Assembly: GCA_022826665.1 (NCBI GenBank)
Contig: JAJDUK010000046.1
Location: forward strand, 1-45,966
Reading direction: 5' to 3'
DNA: 45,966 nucleotides
Source of the DNA: Alphaproteobacteria bacterium
GTDB lineage: Bacteria > Pseudomonadota > Alphaproteobacteria > UBA828
Shown: piece after piece, positions 35,311-44,130 of the stretch
How positions within the stretch are numbered: position 1 is the first letter of the stretch
Layout: each line of letters opens with the position of its first letter
Program-made: the position numbers and the translations under genes
Notes under the pieces: model-generated
Seen by the model: only the letters and a program-made list of their open reading frames with translations
What the model was told of the DNA's origin: nothing
Databases searched by the model: none

Positions 35311-37173
35311 ATGGATAGCGGACAACCGCCGTTTACGACGAACCCCATACTGCTGAAGAGCCTGTTGGCTCAGGTGGGGCAAGGTGCTCTACAGCTTCCA
35401 GACTTCCAACGCGGATGGGTGTGGGATGATGAGCGAATCAAGGGACTCATCGCCAGCATTTCAAAGGGATTTCCGATCGGCGCAGTGATGACGCTGGCCA
35501 CGAACGGCCACGTCGCGTTTAGGGCGCGACCCATCGAAGGAGCAGAGGAGACCGCTGCAGGGAAAGCACCAACCGACTATCTGCTGGATGGGCAGCAGCG
35601 CCTTACCTCGCTCTACCAAGCACTGCAACATCCCGGGCCTGTGGCGACCCAGACGACACAGGGGCGGCCGATCAAGCGTCGCTACTACATCGACATGCGG
35701 GCGGCGCTGGAGGCAGATCGCGATCGCGAGGAGGCGATCATCAGCGTTACCGAAGACGGGCGACAATACGGCGCATTCGGGCGCGAGATTGTAATCGACC
35801 TTAGCACGCGCGACCACGAGTACGAACAACATGCGATTCCGACCGAGCGGCTGTGCGACGAAGGCATGTGGGTCATCGAGTACATCGGGCACTGGGAAGG
35901 ACGGGAGGACCATCCAGACGGTAGCGCGGCGAATCTCGTCATGCGCTTCAAAGCCGAAATCATGAATCAGTTCGCCCTGTACCAACTCCCGGTGATCGGT
36001 CTGGCTGCGGGGACACCGCCCGAAGCGGTCTGCACGGTGTTCGAGAAAGTAAACATGGGCGGCGTGACGCTGACCACGTTCGAGCTCGTGACCGCGATGT
36101 TCGCCGGCCACGGCTTCAAGCTGCGTGAGGATTGGGACTCGCGTCGCAGGCAACTGCAGGATCAGTTTGATGTACTTCGAGGAATTGGAGGTGAGCAATT
36201 CCTGCAGACAGTGACCCTTCTGGCAACCCAGGCGGCTAAGCGACAGGCGCAAGCTGCAGGAGTTCCTCCAGAACGCGTGCCGGGGGTGAAGTGCAAAAAA
36301 CACGATGTGCTGAGGCTCCAAGTGAGCGAGTACGAGGAGTGGGCTGATCTCGTGCAGATTGGCTACGAAGAGGCAGCGAAATTTCTCCACCGGCAGTTCG
36401 TGTTTACGCACAACAACGTTCCTTACGGCACTCAACTCGTTCCGCTGGCAGGTCTGTTCGTGGAGCTGAGCACACAAGAGTTGCACAGCGCGAAAGCCCG
36501 CGAGCGCCTGGAGCAGTGGTATTGGTGTGGCGTGTTGGGCGAGCGCTACAGCACAGGCACCGAAACGCAATATGCGGTCGATCTGGAAGAGGTCGCTACA
36601 TTCGTGCGCACCGGAGAATCGCCAAGGATCGTCCGCGAAGCGAGCTTCAATCCGGAACGACTGATCAGTATGACGACGCGAAACAGCGCTGCCTACAAGG
36701 GCATGTTCGCGCTTCAAATGAAACGTGGTGGACGAGACTGGATGACGGGAGAGGCGCTTACTCAGATGACGTTGGAGAACGAGAACATCGATATTCACCA
36801 CGTATTCCCAATAAATTACTGCGAGAAGCGAGAGGAGCCGATCCCCTACTGGCTGTACCAATCCGTAGTGAATAAGGCGCCCATTGACGCGAGAACGAAT
36901 CGGAGCATCGGCGGACGTGCGCCGTCGAGCTACGTGCCCAATCTGAAGGAACGAGCGGGAGAGCGCCTGGAACCGATTTTGGAAAGCTACGGAATCGACG
37001 TTCAGAAGTTGGAAAGGGACCAGTTCGCACAGTTCTTCGTGGCACGAGGCAAAAAGATGCTGGAGTGGATCGCAGGTGAGATGGGAAAACGGACGGACGC
37101 AGATGTTGGAGCGCTTGAGAACGCAGTAAGAAACGTGAGAGATCCCGTCGATCCATTTATCGACGGCGCATGA
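35311..37173 (+). CDS. DUF262 / HNH (GmrSD-like) putative restriction protein
   Basis: Full-length protein of 620 aa. The N-terminal DUF262 domain has LPDFQRGWVWDDERIKGLI (about 28), DGQQR at 93-97 and VNMGGVTLTTFELVTAMF. The C-terminal DUF1524-like HNH nuclease region has DIHHVFP (H496, H497) and NKAPIDARTNRSIGG. In GmrSD, DUF262 (GmrS) binds and hydrolyses NTP and DUF1524 (GmrD) cuts glucosylated or otherwise modified phage DNA; fused forms act as type IV restriction enzymes. GAGGGA lies 4 bases before ATG 35311, preferred over GTG 35293. Lower GC and more varied codons than the backbone suggest transfer. Seven codons after its stop, in the same frame, comes a transposase remnant. Confidence 0.87.
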   Translation: MDSGQPPFTTNPILLKSLLAQVGQGALQLPDFQRGWVWDDERIKGLIASISKGFPIGAVMTLATNGHVAFRARPIEGAEETAAGKAPTDYLLDGQQRLTSLYQALQHPGPVATQTTQGRPIKRRYYIDMRAALEADRDREEAIISVTEDGRQYGAFGREIVIDLSTRDHEYEQHAIPTERLCDEGMWVIEYIGHWEGREDHPDGSAANLVMRFKAEIMNQFALYQLPVIGLAAGTPPEAVCTVFEKVNMGGVTLTTFELVTAMFAGHGFKLREDWDSRRRQLQDQFDVLRGIGGEQFLQTVTLLATQAAKRQAQAAGVPPERVPGVKCKKHDVLRLQVSEYEEWADLVQIGYEEAAKFLHRQFVFTHNNVPYGTQLVPLAGLFVELSTQELHSAKARERLEQWYWCGVLGERYSTGTETQYAVDLEEVATFVRTGESPRIVREASFNPERLISMTTRNSAAYKGMFALQMKRGGRDWMTGEALTQMTLENENIDIHHVFPINYCEKREEPIPYWLYQSVVNKAPIDARTNRSIGGRAPSSYVPNLKERAGERLEPILESYGIDVQKLERDQFAQFFVARGKKMLEWIAGEMGKRTDADVGALENAVRNVRDPVDPFIDGA

Positions 37174-37191
37174 CGACGTGCGGTATCGTCG

Positions 37192-37845
37192 ATGCGCTTT
37201 TTTTGTAGCGAATTCGGGGTCAGCCAGAAGTCGGCTTGGTTCGCTTTGCATCGTTTGCGCAAGGCGGGGGAGAATCGCCAGGTCATGTTTTCCGGACCGG
37301 TCGAGGTCGACGAGAGCTATATGAGACGGGAGGAAGCGAAAGAAGCATGCGAGCAAGATGCTCAACGCGGGGGCGAGGGCGTGGTCGGCAAGACCGTCGT
37401 GGAAGGCATGAAGGAGCGGGAGACCAACGAGATCCGGGCCGAAGTGGTGAGCGCCACCAAGCGGACGACGCTGCAAGTGTTTCTCATGGAGCATGCTGCC
37501 CCTGATGCTGTCGTGTACACCGAAGGGGTGGCGGCCTACCGGGGAATCGCCCGCACCCATGGGACCGCGCGGTACAGCGTCGGCGAATATACTTGTGATC
37601 AAGCGCACACCAATGGGCTGGCATCGTTATGGGCGCTCATGAAGCGCGGCTATGTTGACATCTACCGCAAGACGTCGCCGAGGCACTTGGGTCAGTGCGT
37701 TAAGAAGCTCCAGTGCTGCCACAACGTCCGTGAGAAAGACATCTTGGAGCGGATGGAGGCGATCATGACAGGCATGAGTTTAAAACGATTGCTGTATCGG
37801 GAATGGATCGCTGACAACGGTCTCCCGTGCGGTGCGCGGTCGTGA
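37192..37845 (+). pseudogene. IS1595-family transposase, N-terminally truncated and degenerate
   Basis: A 217-aa frame clearly of IS1595 type: VSQKSAWFALHRLRKAGE (helix-turn-helix end), GPVEVDESY (first Asp), VVYTEGVAAYRGI, HSVGEYxxxQAHTNG counterpart at SVGEYTCDQAHTNG, then KRGYVDIYRK and HNVRE. Complete family members are near 300 aa with an N-terminal zinc ribbon, absent here because the DUF262 stop lies only 18 bases before the ATG. The second catalytic Asp, normally YTD, is Glu (YTE), and the conserved GxESFW is GLASLW. It is therefore probably inactive. No terminal inverted repeats were seen. The TGA overlaps the GTG of the next gene. Confidence 0.8.
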
Positions 37846-40412
37846 GCGGGGAAGAAGCGGCTTTCCTGCACTGCCCTATTCGTGGGCAATTGCGGACCCC
37901 GCAACGTGCCGCCGACGGACTGACGTTCACCGAAGAGAAGCGCCGAATAGACGCTATCAGGTTTCTTCTGCAAAAGGACTACCCAGGGGGGCACTTCGGG
38001 ATAGAGACCAGAATCCTCAAATTAGGCAATGATGGTCGGAATTCCATGCGTGCCGACTTTTCCGTGTACCAAGAGCCATGGTCGAAAGTGTCCAAGTGGC
38101 CCGATCAAGAACGACTAGCTGGGACAGTGGTAGTAGGAGAAGTCAAGCGCGAGAATGCGGACAAGAAATCCGCAATCGACACGCAACTCAAACCGGCACT
38201 GTCACTGCTTCCCGACATGAATGCACTCGGCGTGTACTGGGATGATCTGGAGCAACGGTTCTTTTTTCGCGAAATGGCAGGGTCTCTCGCGACGATACGT
38301 GAAGCCCCCATCAGCAAGATACCAAGGTGGATGGAAGGCGTCGGGCCCACATTCCTGACGTTTTCCGACTTGGCTCCCTCAGCCGATCTCTCTAGCACCT
38401 TCGACAAGATGGAGGATTGCCTACATCCCTATGTAACCGACAAGACACGACGGTACGCTATTTTGTTTCAACTTTTGCTGGCGAAAATATGGGACGAGAT
38501 TACGCACTCGAATTATCCCAACGGCCAGCTTGACATTCAGGACTTCAACGCTATGCCCGTGAGCGATGGGGATGTTCTGACCCGCATGGATGCATCTCTG
38601 CAGAAGGCGGTCGGTCACTACAACAGATTTCTTCCCGTCTCGGTAGATTCGTCGTTCTGCTCTCTGAACCCGGAAGCGCTCCGGCGTCTTTCTCAACTGA
38701 TCGCGCCAGTCAACATACTAGACTCGAAACAGAAGGTTATACAGTCATTTTACATGAGATTCGCCAAAGACCTCTACAAGTGGGATTTGGCGCAATATTT
38801 CACGCCGCACGAGGTCGTCGACTTCATCGTGAGCACAACGAATCCGCAAATGGAGCAAGTATGTGATCCCGCCTGCGGCAGCGCGGACTTTCTGGTCAGC
38901 GCGCTTCGCTCTATGCCGATATCTCCCGGCAAGGCCGTCGAGTTTTTGACCGGAGTGGACAACAGCCCCCAAGCGGTCCAAGTGAGCGTTCTCAACATGA
39001 TGCTTCAAGGCGACGGTAAGACGGCGATACAGGAGGCTGACAGTTTAAAGAACCATCCGACGACGGAGAGGACGTACGACGTAGTGCTGTGCAATCCGCC
39101 GTTTGGGACGAAGATAGTGGAGAAACGGTGGGAGATTCTGCGCAATTTCGATATGGGTTACGTCTGGGGGCAAGAGGATGATGGGCGCTTCCGAAAATCG
39201 GACAGCGTGAGAAAGCACCAGCAAACCGGCATACTGTTCGCAGAACTATGCGTGAAGTTGGCACGGCCGGGGGGTCGAGTCGGGATCATTATGCCGAACG
39301 GCTATCTGGGAAACTCGAGCAATGAATACGTAGCGCTTCGGGAATGGTTGCTGCGCCATGCCCGGGTGGTAGCTGTGGTCGCTTTTCCCAGGTTCACCTT
39401 CAAAAAATCTGGTGCGGACGTAAGTGCTTCAGTTGTGGTACTCGAACGCCGGCAATCACCGCTTGCCGCCGTAACTGACAGCGAGGAATACCCAATTTTC
39501 TTCGGTGTAATCGAATCGGTGGGTTGGAGGGCCGGTGACAAGACGGCCAAACCCGTGTACATCAGGGATAAGGACACCGGGAAAGTCCTGCTAGATGACA
39601 GTAACAATCCCATTCTTGATAGCGATTTCGATAAAGTGCTAGATGAATACCGAAGATCAGCTGTTGCCGATCTCTATCCTTGGATACTCGCGGGGCGGGA
39701 GCGGGTCGAAAGCGCCCAAGCGAGTACAACGACGCTCAAGAAGATTATTTATAGCCGAGGCATGATTCTCGATCCGAAACGTTACTGCTCGAAGTACCTA
39801 GTGTTGCGGAACGAGTTGTTGCAGGGGGATCACTTCACGATTGGGGATGTTCTGGAAGAGGTCGAGCGAGAGAAGTTCGAGGCAACAGACTCTGCGGTGT
39901 ACCGTTACGTGGAAATCGAAGATGTCCGTCGCGGCTCTTACGACTTCAAGGAATTGAGAGGCTGGCAACTGCCGGGTAGGGCAAAGCTCATAGCGAATGC
40001 CAGGGATGTATTCATAGCCCATATATGGAGTTGCGCTGGCAAGTGGTTTGTGGTTCCCGACGATGTCGGGCAAGAGAGGCTAGTCGTGACCAACGGTTGT
40101 ACACGGTTTAGAATAAAGTTGGACGGAGAAGCGATGCTTCCCGAGCTCGTGGCCGGGTTATGTTCGGAACTGTTTTCGGTGCAGCTGCGGGCCCTAGCGA
40201 CGGGTTCGGACGGACTGGCCCAAGTGGCACCCGACGACATCCTCGGTGTCGTGATCCCAAGAGTTCAATGCGGCGCTGAACGAAGACAACTGTCTGCACT
40301 CGTGGCCGATTTACTTGGAGGCAGTGTCAATTTCAGCCATGCGGTCAGGTCGGCGGTTTCCTCTGAGTGGCCGCAGCCGCCAGAGAGAAAGAGCCATTGC
40401 GCGTTGGTTTAG
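37842..40412 (+). CDS. Single-chain restriction-modification protein: nuclease + N6-adenine methylase + target recognition (type IIG-like)
   Basis: 856-aa protein in three parts. Residues about 10-130 resemble HsdR N-terminal nuclease: CPIRGQL, RADFSVY (Asp) and VVVGEVKREN (Glu-x-Lys). About 290-560 is an HsdM-like methylase: AQYFTPHEVVDFIV, motif I DPACGSADFL from D342 and motif IV NPPFG from N418. The last 240 residues resemble an HsdS/TRD (FTIGDVLEEVE, YRYVEIEDVRRG, RDVFIAHIW, LVVTNGCTRFRI). There is no helicase motor, so it is type IIG-like rather than type I. Motif I has Ala-Asp where Gly-x is usual (GSGxFL). GTG 37842 overlaps the preceding TGA; GTG 37827 is also open. Confidence 0.85.
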   Translation: MSGEEAAFLHCPIRGQLRTPQRAADGLTFTEEKRRIDAIRFLLQKDYPGGHFGIETRILKLGNDGRNSMRADFSVYQEPWSKVSKWPDQERLAGTVVVGEVKRENADKKSAIDTQLKPALSLLPDMNALGVYWDDLEQRFFFREMAGSLATIREAPISKIPRWMEGVGPTFLTFSDLAPSADLSSTFDKMEDCLHPYVTDKTRRYAILFQLLLAKIWDEITHSNYPNGQLDIQDFNAMPVSDGDVLTRMDASLQKAVGHYNRFLPVSVDSSFCSLNPEALRRLSQLIAPVNILDSKQKVIQSFYMRFAKDLYKWDLAQYFTPHEVVDFIVSTTNPQMEQVCDPACGSADFLVSALRSMPISPGKAVEFLTGVDNSPQAVQVSVLNMMLQGDGKTAIQEADSLKNHPTTERTYDVVLCNPPFGTKIVEKRWEILRNFDMGYVWGQEDDGRFRKSDSVRKHQQTGILFAELCVKLARPGGRVGIIMPNGYLGNSSNEYVALREWLLRHARVVAVVAFPRFTFKKSGADVSASVVVLERRQSPLAAVTDSEEYPIFFGVIESVGWRAGDKTAKPVYIRDKDTGKVLLDDSNNPILDSDFDKVLDEYRRSAVADLYPWILAGRERVESAQASTTTLKKIIYSRGMILDPKRYCSKYLVLRNELLQGDHFTIGDVLEEVEREKFEATDSAVYRYVEIEDVRRGSYDFKELRGWQLPGRAKLIANARDVFIAHIWSCAGKWFVVPDDVGQERLVVTNGCTRFRIKLDGEAMLPELVAGLCSELFSVQLRALATGSDGLAQVAPDDILGVVIPRVQCGAERRQLSALVADLLGGSVNFSHAVRSAVSSEWPQPPERKSHCALV

Positions 40413-40954
40413 GGCAGAGCAGGCAGATATGACCGCCAAGTCCAAGCGCCCCATTTGCCGCCCCGCCTGCATCCCTGAATCCCACGACGTGTTGATGCAC
40501 ACGGGGGCTATCAGTCGAGCAAGGCAGAGCATGAGGAGGAAGTCTACATGCAGGGTAGTTCCGAGAGGCATCATTCTGTCCGTTCCGTTTTGTCAAAAGC
40601 GCATAGATGGTTATGGGCGCCGTGTGCCTCTCCGATATAGCTCCCAATCCGAATATGAGATTAGGCCACGGCTTTCAGTGAAGCCGCTTCGGTCGGGGCA
40701 AATTGTCCCAGTGAGTTGACCGTGCCTCCGACGGATGTGAGGATGAACCATCCAATGAACGCGGACGGGACAGCGTCAACTAACCGCATATGCAAGGCAA
40801 ATCGCTGGAGGTGGGGGTGCGATGGCCCACGCGAGAGCATGACACACTCTGCCGACGAAAGCTGGCACGCTAAGCCTAGCCTCCTTTTCCGCTCTCACCG
40901 GGCAACGCGGCGGCGGTTCAACGGCAAGAGGTCGAAACTAATCGAGACTTTTCT
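40413..40954. other. Intergenic stretch between R-M gene and KwaA-like gene
   Basis: About 540 bases. Short frames on both strands give Arg/Ser-rich products without recognisable sequence. One (40716-40958, 80 aa) ends in TGA overlapping the GTG of the KwaA-like gene but has no Shine-Dalgarno and reads like non-coding DNA. A weak promoter for kwaA is possible at TTGTCA 40590-40595 with TATGGG 40612-40617 (16 apart). Confidence 0.5.
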
Positions 40955-41476
40955 GTGAGCAGACTCGCTAAACTCTTTTTAGCAATCACCGCCTTTGCGC
41001 CGGCTCTGCTGACCTACGCGGCCATATCGGCTATCAATTGTGATTATTGGCACGCCGCTGCATTCGTGGCTGGCTGTGTTCTATTGGTTCTCATTTGCGT
41101 CTGCCTTCTCTGCTTCGCCAAGAGCAGCCTACAATCTAGAACCTACTGCACCGCCACCGTCGAAACCGCTGATGGCGATGTCTTCGGCCTTCTCCTAGTC
41201 TACCTGTTACCTCTGATTACGCGAGACTTGTCGACTTACAATTGGCTCGCGTGGGTAATAGTGACATTCGTATTTTGTCTGGTGGTTTCGACCAGCTATG
41301 GTTACCACTTCAATCCGTTGCTGGTCTTCCTCCGCTATCACTTCTACAAAGTCACAGAAACAGACGGTTTGCCACACGTACTCATAACAAGACGGCGCAT
41401 TTACAAGACAGGCGAAACGCTGGAAGTCGCCCGTTTGGCCGAGTACGTGCTGATCGAGAAGAAGGTACCTGGCTAG
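40955..41476 (+). CDS. KwaA-like four-helix membrane protein (Kiwa anti-phage system)
   Basis: 173-aa membrane protein with four hydrophobic segments, about 6-27, 33-54, 75-89 and 97-116. A cytosolic tail carries YGYHFNPLLVFLRYHFYKV (115-132) and LITRRRIYKTGE. Four helices followed by the YHFNPLL...FHFYxV block is the pattern I associate with KwaA, the membrane sensor of Kiwa; recognition is from memory. The neighbouring DUF4868 protein strongly supports it. Start is GTG 40955 with only a weak GAG upstream. Its TAG (41474-41476) shares the CTAG with the stop of the opposing gene. In Kiwa, KwaA detects phage attachment and holds KwaB at the membrane. Confidence 0.65.
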   Translation: MSRLAKLFLAITAFAPALLTYAAISAINCDYWHAAAFVAGCVLLVLICVCLLCFAKSSLQSRTYCTATVETADGDVFGLLLVYLLPLITRDLSTYNWLAWVIVTFVFCLVVSTSYGYHFNPLLVFLRYHFYKVTETDGLPHVLITRRRIYKTGETLEVARLAEYVLIEKKVPG

Positions 41477-42339
41477 GTTACTGGCCGTCTCGAGTTCGTG
41501 ATGAACGCCTCGCCAGATATGGGCCCAACATACCGGCCGTCGTTGAGGAAACGCATGAGTTCCGTGATGGCGCCGCTGGTACTGGGAACCACGATCTTGC
41601 CATTTTGTACCACGATCGACAGTCTTGTTCCAGTGGACGCAGTCTGCAACGTCTGGGCCGTGTGACTTCGCAGAGCCTCGCTCCTCGCAATAGACGCCAA
41701 GTATTTCCTTGCGTTTCGGCTGGTGTTGTTTACAAAGTCGTCGACATCAGCAATCTCAAACAGGTTCGCATAGTCAACCGCGAAAGTTCTTACCTCCCCA
41801 TCCGTGGCTGCGCTGAAGATAGCTGAAGTGTCGATTACACGGCCGAGACTGTAGAGACTACGGAACTTGATCAGGCCGCCCTCCACAATACATACTAGTT
41901 TGTTGTCCAATCGGAATGCGGACGCCTCTAACCGAGTGTACGTACCGGCTTCGAAGAGCAAGGAAACCAGCCAAGGCCTGTTGAGCGATTGGCTGGGAGC
42001 AAAAGATTGGACAAGTATTCGCTCCGTTCCTCCATCGTCGGTCTTCATAGCGAGACCGCGGACTTCGTTCAGATCGCTGGTGTCTACTGGTTCCAGGGCT
42101 GTGCTGGCCACCTGCAAGATGTCTCCGAACACGGAGATGTCAGGGGGAATGGACGTCGTTGCGATTTCGTCGCCGTCGTTCAACCAGTTCTCATCGAAGG
42201 GCCGTTCCTCGCCCTCGCGGAATGACGCTTCCTGTCTGAGGAAGGCATCGGCTACGTCGTTCTGTGCGGAAGCGCTGAGCGGCACCTCCTTGACCGAGAG
42301 GTCTTGCTTCTGGCCGCAAAGCGCTAACAGCAGCGACAC
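41473..42339 (-). CDS. KwaB-like DUF4868 protein (Kiwa anti-phage system)
   Basis: 288-aa soluble protein. The core at about 125-195 fits DUF4868 as found in KwaB: VSLLFEAGTYTRLEASAFRL, then IVEGGLIKFRSL, DTSAIFSAATDGEVRTFA and ANLFEIA. The N terminus (SLLLALCGQKQDLSVKEVPLS) reads as a first beta-strand of the same family, so the protein seems complete. GTG 42339 has GGAGG (42346-42350) exactly 6 bases upstream. KwaB is the DNA-binding effector that stops late phage replication. Here the gene runs against the KwaA-like gene, whereas known loci are kwaA-kwaB operons. A short leader frame with its own strong ribosome site overlaps the start. Confidence 0.68.
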   Translation of the reverse strand: MSLLLALCGQKQDLSVKEVPLSASAQNDVADAFLRQEASFREGEERPFDENWLNDGDEIATTSIPPDISVFGDILQVASTALEPVDTSDLNEVRGLAMKTDDGGTERILVQSFAPSQSLNRPWLVSLLFEAGTYTRLEASAFRLDNKLVCIVEGGLIKFRSLYSLGRVIDTSAIFSAATDGEVRTFAVDYANLFEIADVDDFVNNTSRNARKYLASIARSEALRSHTAQTLQTASTGTRLSIVVQNGKIVVPSTSGAITELMRFLNDGRYVGPISGEAFITNSRRPVT

Positions 42340-42909: not shown

Positions 42910-44130
42910 ATGTACGAGCGGTTCGTAGGGCGGCGGACAGAGGAAGCCCTGTCAGATACCCCAGTGGTGCTGATCGTGGGGCCGCGCCGGGCAGGCAAGA
43001 CAACGCTCGCTCGCATGATAGGCGACGCAGGAAGAAACTACATCACACTGGACGATGAGACGGTACTAGAAGCTGCACGGTCCGATCCAACGGGCTTCGT
43101 TCGCGGTTTGGATTGGGCCACGATTGATGAAATTCAGCGGGTACCCGAGCTGTTGCTCGCAATCAAGAGGACCGTGGACGAGGACTATCGCCCTGGCCGC
43201 TTCTTGCTGACAGGATCCGCCAACGTGATGACCCTGCCCAGGGTCGCAGACAGCCTGGCAGGCAGGATCGAGACAATCCGAATGCTGCCGCTGGCTCGCG
43301 CCGAAATAGCAGGCAGGGCGCCGGTCTTCCTAGAACGGCTGTTCGAGGGGAAGCTGCAGGACAGTCAAGATGCGGTAATCGGTGACGACCTGATCCGGTT
43401 GGTGCTGCTAGGGGGATATCCAGAGGCCATCGGGCGCGCGACCGAGCGGCGGCGCCTAAATTGGGCACGATCCTATCTGGCTTCGGTCTTATCCCGCGAT
43501 CTAAGGGAGATCGGGGAAATCGAGAAGCTGACCGAACTCCCGAAATTCGTCCGGCTCCTGGCGGAACACTCGGGGAAGCTGGTCAATTACTCGAAACTCG
43601 GCTCTGGCATCGATGTCAGCCACAAGACGGGACAGCGCTATGTAGCGCTGTTGGAACAGGTGTTCCTCGTCTCGACATTGCAGCCTTGGTACACGAACGC
43701 ACTGAAGCGCATCGCCAAGACGCCCAAGCTGCATTTTCTAGACTCCGGTTTGCTCGCCGCAGCGCGGGGCCTGAGCTTCGACCGCGTTAAGGCTAACCGT
43801 GGCGAGTTAGGTGCGGTCCTGGAGAGCTTTGTGTACTCAGAAGTGCTGAAGCTCATGACTGCCTCAGACCAGCAACTGACGGCCTACCATTTCCGCGACC
43901 AGCTCATGCACGAGGTTGACATCGTCCTGGAGCGCGACGACGGAATAATCGTGGGGATCGAAGTCAAGGCATCCGCGACGGTCAAATCCAGTGATTTCGC
44001 CGGGCTGCGGACTATGGCCGAGGCCTGCGGTGAGCGCTTCGGCTATGGAGTCGTGCTTCACGACAGCGCGGATTTCGTGCCATTCGGGGATAGAATGGCG
44101 GCGGTGCCGGTATCGTGTCTGTGGGGGTGA
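42910..44130 (+). CDS. AAA ATPase with DUF4143 domain
   Basis: 406-aa ATPase. Walker A is GPRRAGKT (24-31), Walker B is in WATIDEIQRVPELL and sensor LTGSAN follows. The C-terminal DUF4143 region holds RDLREIG, LGSGIDVSHKTGQRYVALLEQVFLV and the PD-(D/E)xK-like end HEVDIVLER..GIVVGIEVKAS-type stretch (E-x-K in GIEVKAS). Such proteins are frequent in genomic islands and some defence loci, but their role is not well established. GTGAGGCG lies before ATG 42910. No partner gene is coupled to it. Confidence 0.88.
   Translation: MYERFVGRRTEEALSDTPVVLIVGPRRAGKTTLARMIGDAGRNYITLDDETVLEAARSDPTGFVRGLDWATIDEIQRVPELLLAIKRTVDEDYRPGRFLLTGSANVMTLPRVADSLAGRIETIRMLPLARAEIAGRAPVFLERLFEGKLQDSQDAVIGDDLIRLVLLGGYPEAIGRATERRRLNWARSYLASVLSRDLREIGEIEKLTELPKFVRLLAEHSGKLVNYSKLGSGIDVSHKTGQRYVALLEQVFLVSTLQPWYTNALKRIAKTPKLHFLDSGLLAAARGLSFDRVKANRGELGAVLESFVYSEVLKLMTASDQQLTAYHFRDQLMHEVDIVLERDDGIIVGIEVKASATVKSSDFAGLRTMAEACGERFGYGVVLHDSADFVPFGDRMAAVPVSCLWG

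What the first reader, a model, noticed from the sequence alone, without database searches (positions are those of the whole stretch)
35311..40412. DUF262 protein, dead IS1595 transposase and R-M-S protein packed as one coupled run
Three frames in one direction have an 18-base gap and then a 4-base GTGA overlap. The middle one is an IS1595-type transposase without its zinc ribbon and with changed catalytic residues, yet its frame is open for 217 codons with no terminal repeats. Either an insertion sequence decayed between two defence genes, or a domesticated transposase-like protein is part of the system.
Basis: partly seen in the sequence, partly recalled or inferred. Interest (0 to 1): 0.6.

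Follow-up and report, generated by a model that had tools for sequence, protein, structure and literature searches.

The report
Transposon relic with restriction-modification cargo
The three-gene 'defence run' is two unrelated things: an intact DUF262 nuclease-type gene, and next to it the broken remains of a small IS1595-type transposon whose probable cargo gene, a one-piece restriction-modification enzyme that starts on the transposase stop codon, is still intact.

Summary
The anatomy is as described: DUF262 gene (35311-37173), 18-base gap, a 217-codon IS1595-type transposase frame lacking its first ~110 codons, a GTGA overlap, then an R-M-S gene (37842-40412). It is not a three-gene system. 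Eleven DUF262 relatives (37-42% identity) lack the other two genes, and 14 R-M-S relatives (29-45%) lack both partners. The transposase has lost 43% of the columns invariant in 14 relatives (others at most 14%), two catalytic-motif acidic residues, and its frame over 37322-37378, where two compensating frameshifts are inferred. The new finding comes from 40 related loci. Twenty are complete elements with GGGRATTATATAC ends, 16 with exact 8-bp target duplications, and all carry 1.1-3.3 kb of cargo after the transposase. In 11 of 36 types the cargo starts exactly on the transposase stop codon. About half of the complete elements carry restriction-modification-type genes. So the GTGA 'coupling' is this element group's own layout, and the R-M-S gene is most likely cargo of a 5'-truncated, dead IS1595 transporter. 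DUF262 is an unrelated island neighbour. Weak points: the candidate right end (40633-40645) is degenerate, and no intact element with this cargo was found.

The parts
35311..37173 (+). DUF262 (GmrSD_N) gene, 620 aa, with DGQQR and a C-terminal HHVFP motif; intact; unrelated neighbour, not part of the element
   Evidence: Pfam PF03235 E 8e-27; relatives aligned to the same C-terminal point
37174..37191 (+). Gap of 18 bases; IS1595 homology already runs through its last ~12 bases (A-V-S-S before ATG)
37192..37845 (+). 5'-truncated, decayed IS1595 transposase (DDE part only, 217 aa); the native C-terminus is kept
37322..37378 (+). Out-of-frame stretch inside the transposase, between two inferred compensating frameshifts (limits approximate)
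37842..37845 (+). GTGA: start codon of R-M-S on the transposase stop codon, the same position as the cargo start in 11 of 36 relative element types
37842..40412 (+). R-M-S gene: nuclease-like N-terminus (D72, E100, K102), N6-adenine methylase (DPACG, NPPF), C-terminal target-recognition region; 856 aa, apparently intact; probable cargo of the element
40633..40645 (-). Candidate degenerate right terminal inverted repeat (GGGAGCTATATCG)
   Evidence: second best of ~92,000 positions and best in the required orientation, but below every genuine end

Best explanation
The stretch from 37174 to about 40645 is the remnant of an IS1595-family 'transporter' insertion sequence whose cargo is a single-gene restriction-modification enzyme. 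In intact relatives the order is left inverted repeat, transposase, cargo (often starting on the transposase stop codon, so that both can be translated from one message), right inverted repeat. Here the left repeat and the zinc-ribbon part of the transposase were lost, leaving the DDE part abutting the stop codon of an unrelated DUF262 gene. The transposase then decayed, so the element can no longer move itself. The R-M-S gene keeps its catalytic motifs and probably still methylates and cuts DNA, now expressed by read-through from upstream. Shown: gene order, truncation, decay, layout and cargo of relatives, independence of the DUF262 and R-M-S families. Inferred: that this R-M-S gene came in as cargo, the right end, the read-through expression, and that R-M-S is active.
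For: Twenty complete relatives with inverted ends, 16 with exact 8-bp target duplications, all with 1.1-3.3 kb of cargo after the transposase. Cargo starts at exactly -1 on the transposase stop in 11 of 36 types; the junction reads CGGTCATGAGC in L130 and CGGTCGTGAGC in the window. Cargo is often R-M: BglII, XcyI, SacI, GIY-YIG, HNH and HsdM/HsdS types; L148 carries an HsdM-type methylase plus HsdS at the -1 position. The R-M-S N-terminus is complete from the GTG, compared with relatives. The best right-oriented end-like site in the window lies 221 bases after R-M-S, 2.8 kb from the transposase stop. Decay of the transposase.
Against: The candidate right end scores below all 34 genuine ends. 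No intact element with an R-M-S homologue was found; R-M-S relatives have no IS1595 ends or transposase near them. No target duplication can be tested, because the left end is gone.
Confidence: 0.7

Rival explanations
1. An ordinary IS1595 element inserted between (or into the flank of) two existing defence genes and decayed; its right end was deleted by chance exactly down to its stop codon, which became joined to the R-M-S start.
For: Transposase decay and truncation; R-M-S relatives stand alone in other genomes; the right end is weak.
Against: The deletion would have to end exactly where cargo genes of relatives begin, leave a complete R-M-S N-terminus, and reproduce the CGGTCRTGAGC junction. 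All 20 complete relatives carry cargo, none is a bare IS.
Confidence: 0.2
2. The fragment no longer transposes, but its frame is kept open by selection as a translational leader that feeds ribosomes into R-M-S (compatible with the best explanation as a later stage).
For: No stop in 217 codons despite damage that neutrally would leave it stop-free with a chance of only 0.05-0.11; the frame is restored after a shifted stretch; the start-on-stop overlap is kept.
Against: The probability is not extreme; no population data or dN/dS are possible with relatives at 45% identity at best.
Confidence: 0.25
3. A domesticated transposase-like protein is a working part of a DUF262/transposase/R-M-S defence system.
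For: Open frame for 217 codons and tight packing; most changes at invariant sites outside the frameshift zone are mild.
Against: No genome found keeps the trio or any pair of it. A shifted stretch follows directly after the first catalytic Asp, and no relative shares the truncation point together with the altered motifs.
Confidence: 0.04

Closest known systems
IS1595-family transporter IS (tIS) with passenger genes (Siguier, Gagnevin and Chandler 2009, as cited in PMC11891212)
   Same: Transposase family, 8-bp target duplications and inverted ends in the relatives, passenger genes downstream of the transposase
   Different: This copy is truncated and dead; its probable cargo is a one-chain R-M enzyme. 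The review text that I could read names transcription regulators as the example for IS1595
R-M systems moved by IS or transposons (PMC3031569; PMC4176335)
   Same: R-M genes carried by mobile DNA, with possible stabilisation of the carrier by R-M addiction
   Different: The IS-flanked cases described in PMC3031569 are composite (IS copies on both sides); here one small element has the cargo start codon on the transposase stop
Type IIG/IIB single-chain restriction-modification enzymes (BpuSI, BsaXI)
   Same: Order nuclease-methylase-specificity in one chain; best fold matches of the model
   Different: Low sequence identity (12-17% structural alignment) and low TM-scores; cleavage pattern and recognition site unknown
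GmrSD / DUF262 single-chain defence nucleases
   Same: GmrSD_N domain with DGQQR and a C-terminal HHVFP motif
   Different: A neighbour only; no evidence that it works with R-M-S

Membership tests
IS1595-family element | IS1595/ISXO2-type DDE transposase | tested here: met
   Pfam E 7e-22; NCBIfam 96.5 bits against a cut-off of 75
IS1595-family element | N-terminal zinc ribbon and intact catalytic residues | tested here: not met
   First ~110 codons missing; TDE to TEG and NGIES to NGLAS: a remnant, not a functional member
IS1595-family element | Terminal inverted repeats and 8-bp target duplication | tested here: inconclusive
   Left end absent, right end only a degenerate candidate at 40633-40645; both features are met in relatives
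Transporter IS with cargo | Gene directly after, or overlapping, the transposase stop, inside the element | tested here: inconclusive
   The overlap is at the conserved -1 position, but the element boundary after R-M-S is not proven
Type IIG-like R-M-S enzyme | PD-(D/E)xK-type nuclease residues, N6-adenine methylase motifs and a specificity domain in one chain | tested here: met
   D72, E100, K102, DPACG and NPPF conserved in all relatives; fold matches BsaXI and BpuSI
Type IIG-like R-M-S enzyme | Cleavage and methylation activity at a defined site | not testable with these tools
   Needs expression or a methylome
MADS (methylation-associated defence, MAD2) | MAD2 model above its curated cut-off | tested here: not met
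   186.6 bits against a cut-off of 720
Three-gene DUF262/transposase/R-M-S defence system | Recurrent co-occurrence of the genes in other genomes | tested here: not met
   0 of 11 close DUF262 loci and 0 of 14 R-M-S loci

The most novel reading that the evidence does not exclude
A lineage of IS1595 elements works as a very small carrier of restriction-modification systems. It links R-M translation to its transposase by a start-on-stop overlap, so that the mobile element and the addictive R-M cargo are expressed together. The window shows an end stage, where the R-M gene has outlived a dead carrier and the dead transposase frame is kept open only as its translational leader.
Probability: 0.3. 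Interest if true: 0.7.

Novelty: new variant of a known kind. Interest (0 to 1): 0.45.

Why it matters
It replaces a supposed three-part defence operon by a simple and testable history, and points to a compact way in which restriction-modification genes move: as start-on-stop-coupled cargo of IS1595 elements only 2-4 kb long. R-M systems are known on transposons, but here relatives of one transposase carry several unrelated R-M types. That makes it a useful system for asking whether R-M addiction stabilises insertion sequences. It is also a caution: gene overlap inside a defence island does not prove a joint function.

Tried and rejected
1) The trio as a conserved system: rejected. 2) DUF262 + R-M-S as a pair: none found; DUF262 relatives sit beside DISARM genes, toxin-antitoxin genes and others. 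3) MADS membership of R-M-S: far below the cut-off. 4) A left end upstream of DUF262: no convincing repeat. 5) Target duplication of the bases next to the candidate right end (AATCCGAA): no second copy upstream. 6) R-M-S relatives inside IS1595 elements: no bracketing ends in L079-L091 or pTET3. 7) DNA-level relatives of the fragment on plasmids: none; one distant viral-contig hit. 8) The first genome-contig scan with R-M-S alone found nothing; the alignment-based scan found 13 loci. 10) The neutral simulation could not decide between chance and a frame kept open. 11) GC by codon position was uninformative for decay. 12) One script ran into its time limit and was rewritten.

Full report
OBSERVATION. 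All coordinates hold: DUF262/GmrSD_N 35311-37173, an 18-base gap, IS1595-type transposase 37192-37845, GTGA overlap, N6-methylase R-M-S 37842-40412. The R-M-S start is best placed at GTG 37842, since relatives begin about 8-11 residues before the 'CP(I/V)RG' motif. The run lies in a low-GC island (53-60% against mostly 64-71% on the left side) with a Kiwa pair and an AAA/DUF4143 (PDC-S01) gene downstream.

THE TRANSPOSASE IS A TRUNCATED, DECAYED COPY. Relatives are ~310-340 aa; the window copy begins at their residue ~110, within about nine bases of the DUF262 stop, and ends at their native C-terminus. Against 14 relatives it changes 18 of 42 otherwise invariant columns, while each relative left out in turn changes at most 7 of 49. 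With 33 relatives it is 9 of 22, the next worst 5 of 27, median 0. The TDE motif reads TEG and NGIES reads NGLAS. The second change alone is not proof of death: L050/L121 also has NGIAS. Just after the first catalytic Asp, 37322-37378 is out of frame. The +1-frame peptide scores 22.1 against relatives, the actual one 10.5; only 3 of 300 shuffles reach the former. Two compensating frameshifts are therefore inferred. Under neutral change giving the same damage, a stop-free frame has a chance of about 0.05-0.11, so the open frame is mildly surprising and not proof of selection.

THE TRIO IS NOT A SYSTEM. DUF262 relatives at 37-42% identity (L040-L045, L069-L073) are complete to the same C-terminal point and have neither the transposase nor an R-M-S homologue of this family beside them; two have an unrelated or distant N6-methylase some kilobases away. 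One stands directly after DISARM drmA, a DUF1998 gene and drmC. R-M-S relatives at 41-45% over the full length from Sphingomonas, Tabrizicola, Trinickia, Pseudidiomarina, Muribaculaceae and others (L079-L088), and more distant ones (L089-L091, pTET3 L010), have neither DUF262 nor transposase in the flanks held, 6 kb for most and less where contigs end. Sampled genomes of the same phylum gave no other close match.

WHAT THE TRANSPOSASE BELONGS TO. I fetched long stretches around 40 transposase relatives. Twenty are complete elements with inverted ends, consensus GGGAATTATATAC, the left one 13-85 bp before the transposase frame. Sixteen have a perfect 8-bp target duplication (e.g. TATAATTT in L113, AAAGTTTT in L124 of this same genome, AATTTTAA in L136). 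The right end lies 1.1-3.3 kb after the transposase stop in all of them, so every one carries cargo. In 11 of 36 distinct types a frame of 100 codons or more starts exactly at -1 on the transposase stop (ATGA, once GTGA), among them L130 with CGGTCATGAGC; the window reads CGGTCGTGAGC. By Pfam the cargo includes N6/N4 methylase + BglII (L136, five copies in one genome), C5 methylase + GIY-YIG (L135), methylase + HNH (L121), methylase-HNH fusions (L126, L129, and by sequence L130 and L150), XcyI (L143), GIY-YIG alone (L123), D12 methylase + SacI (L149, ends not found), and an HsdM-type methylase followed by HsdS (L148). Ten of the 20 complete elements carry a recognisable R-M-type gene. The remainder carry other or unknown genes.

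BEST READING. The GTGA overlap is the inherited junction of an IS1595 transporter element and its R-M cargo; the DUF262 gene is a neighbour onto which the truncated end abuts. R-M-S is a one-chain enzyme: nuclease-type residues D72/E100/K102, the SAM motif and catalytic NPPF are conserved through the relatives. The AlphaFold model (mean pLDDT 76, pTM 0.54, weak around residues 311-400) matches BsaXI (type IIB) and BpuSI (type IIG) among its best hits. The right end should follow R-M-S. Scored with 34 genuine ends, 40633-40645 is the second best of ~92,000 positions and the best in the required orientation, but lies below every genuine end, so it is only a candidate.

WHAT REMAINS INFERRED. No intact element with this particular cargo was found, and the right end is weak; the rival (independent IS plus an exact deletion to its stop codon) keeps about 0.2. 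Whether the dead frame is kept open as a leader for R-M-S translation cannot be decided from sequence. Activity and expression of R-M-S are not shown.

KNOWN OR NEW. Transporter IS with passenger genes, including IS1595 members, are known (Siguier 2009 as cited in PMC11891212; PMC9330008), and R-M systems on transposons and in IS-flanked units are known (PMC3031569; PMC4176335). In the papers I could search I found no report of R-M systems as habitual cargo of IS1595 elements, but Siguier 2009 was not read and Furuta 2010 is not held, so this part of the novelty is uncertain.

Noticed in passing
window 40955-42339: A Kiwa pair (KwaA 40955-41476 +, KwaB 41473-42339 -) is convergent with a 4-base tail overlap; from my own knowledge Kiwa genes are usually co-directional.
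   Followed up: no
window 42910-44130: AAA_14 + DUF4143 gene matching the candidate defence model PDC-S01 (E 1e-163).
   Followed up: no
L119, L120, L129, L130, L131 (directly after the transposase stop): A recurrent ~140-aa cargo protein of unknown family ('NWVxARAxCT...WN.dtl.CDL.IDG') starts on the transposase stop codon, in two cases followed by a methylase-HNH fusion; no Pfam match for the two tested.
   Followed up: partly
L119, L120, L148, L151 near the right end of the element: A recurrent small frame of ~50-70 aa (e.g. MNDKPVRREVRVKPDDYEPTEAEMNEPIRI...ARVVKDPDA) lies close before the right end, so it may be a conserved element gene.
   Followed up: no
L136-L140 (G684): Five copies in one genome of an IS1595 element with a methylase + BglII-type endonuclease as cargo; one copy has a shortened endonuclease region, so the family looks recently active.
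   Followed up: partly
L044, L041, L042: DUF262 relatives follow DISARM drmC directly (L044, Nostoc) or a ~727-aa HTH-domain gene (L041, L042), which suggests that this DUF262 family is a frequent add-on in defence islands.
   Followed up: partly
L124, L125 (G000 contigs C21 and C100): Two other complete IS1595 elements with perfect 8-bp duplications in the window's own genome; their cargo is not R-M (lipoprotein-like and unknown).
   Followed up: partly
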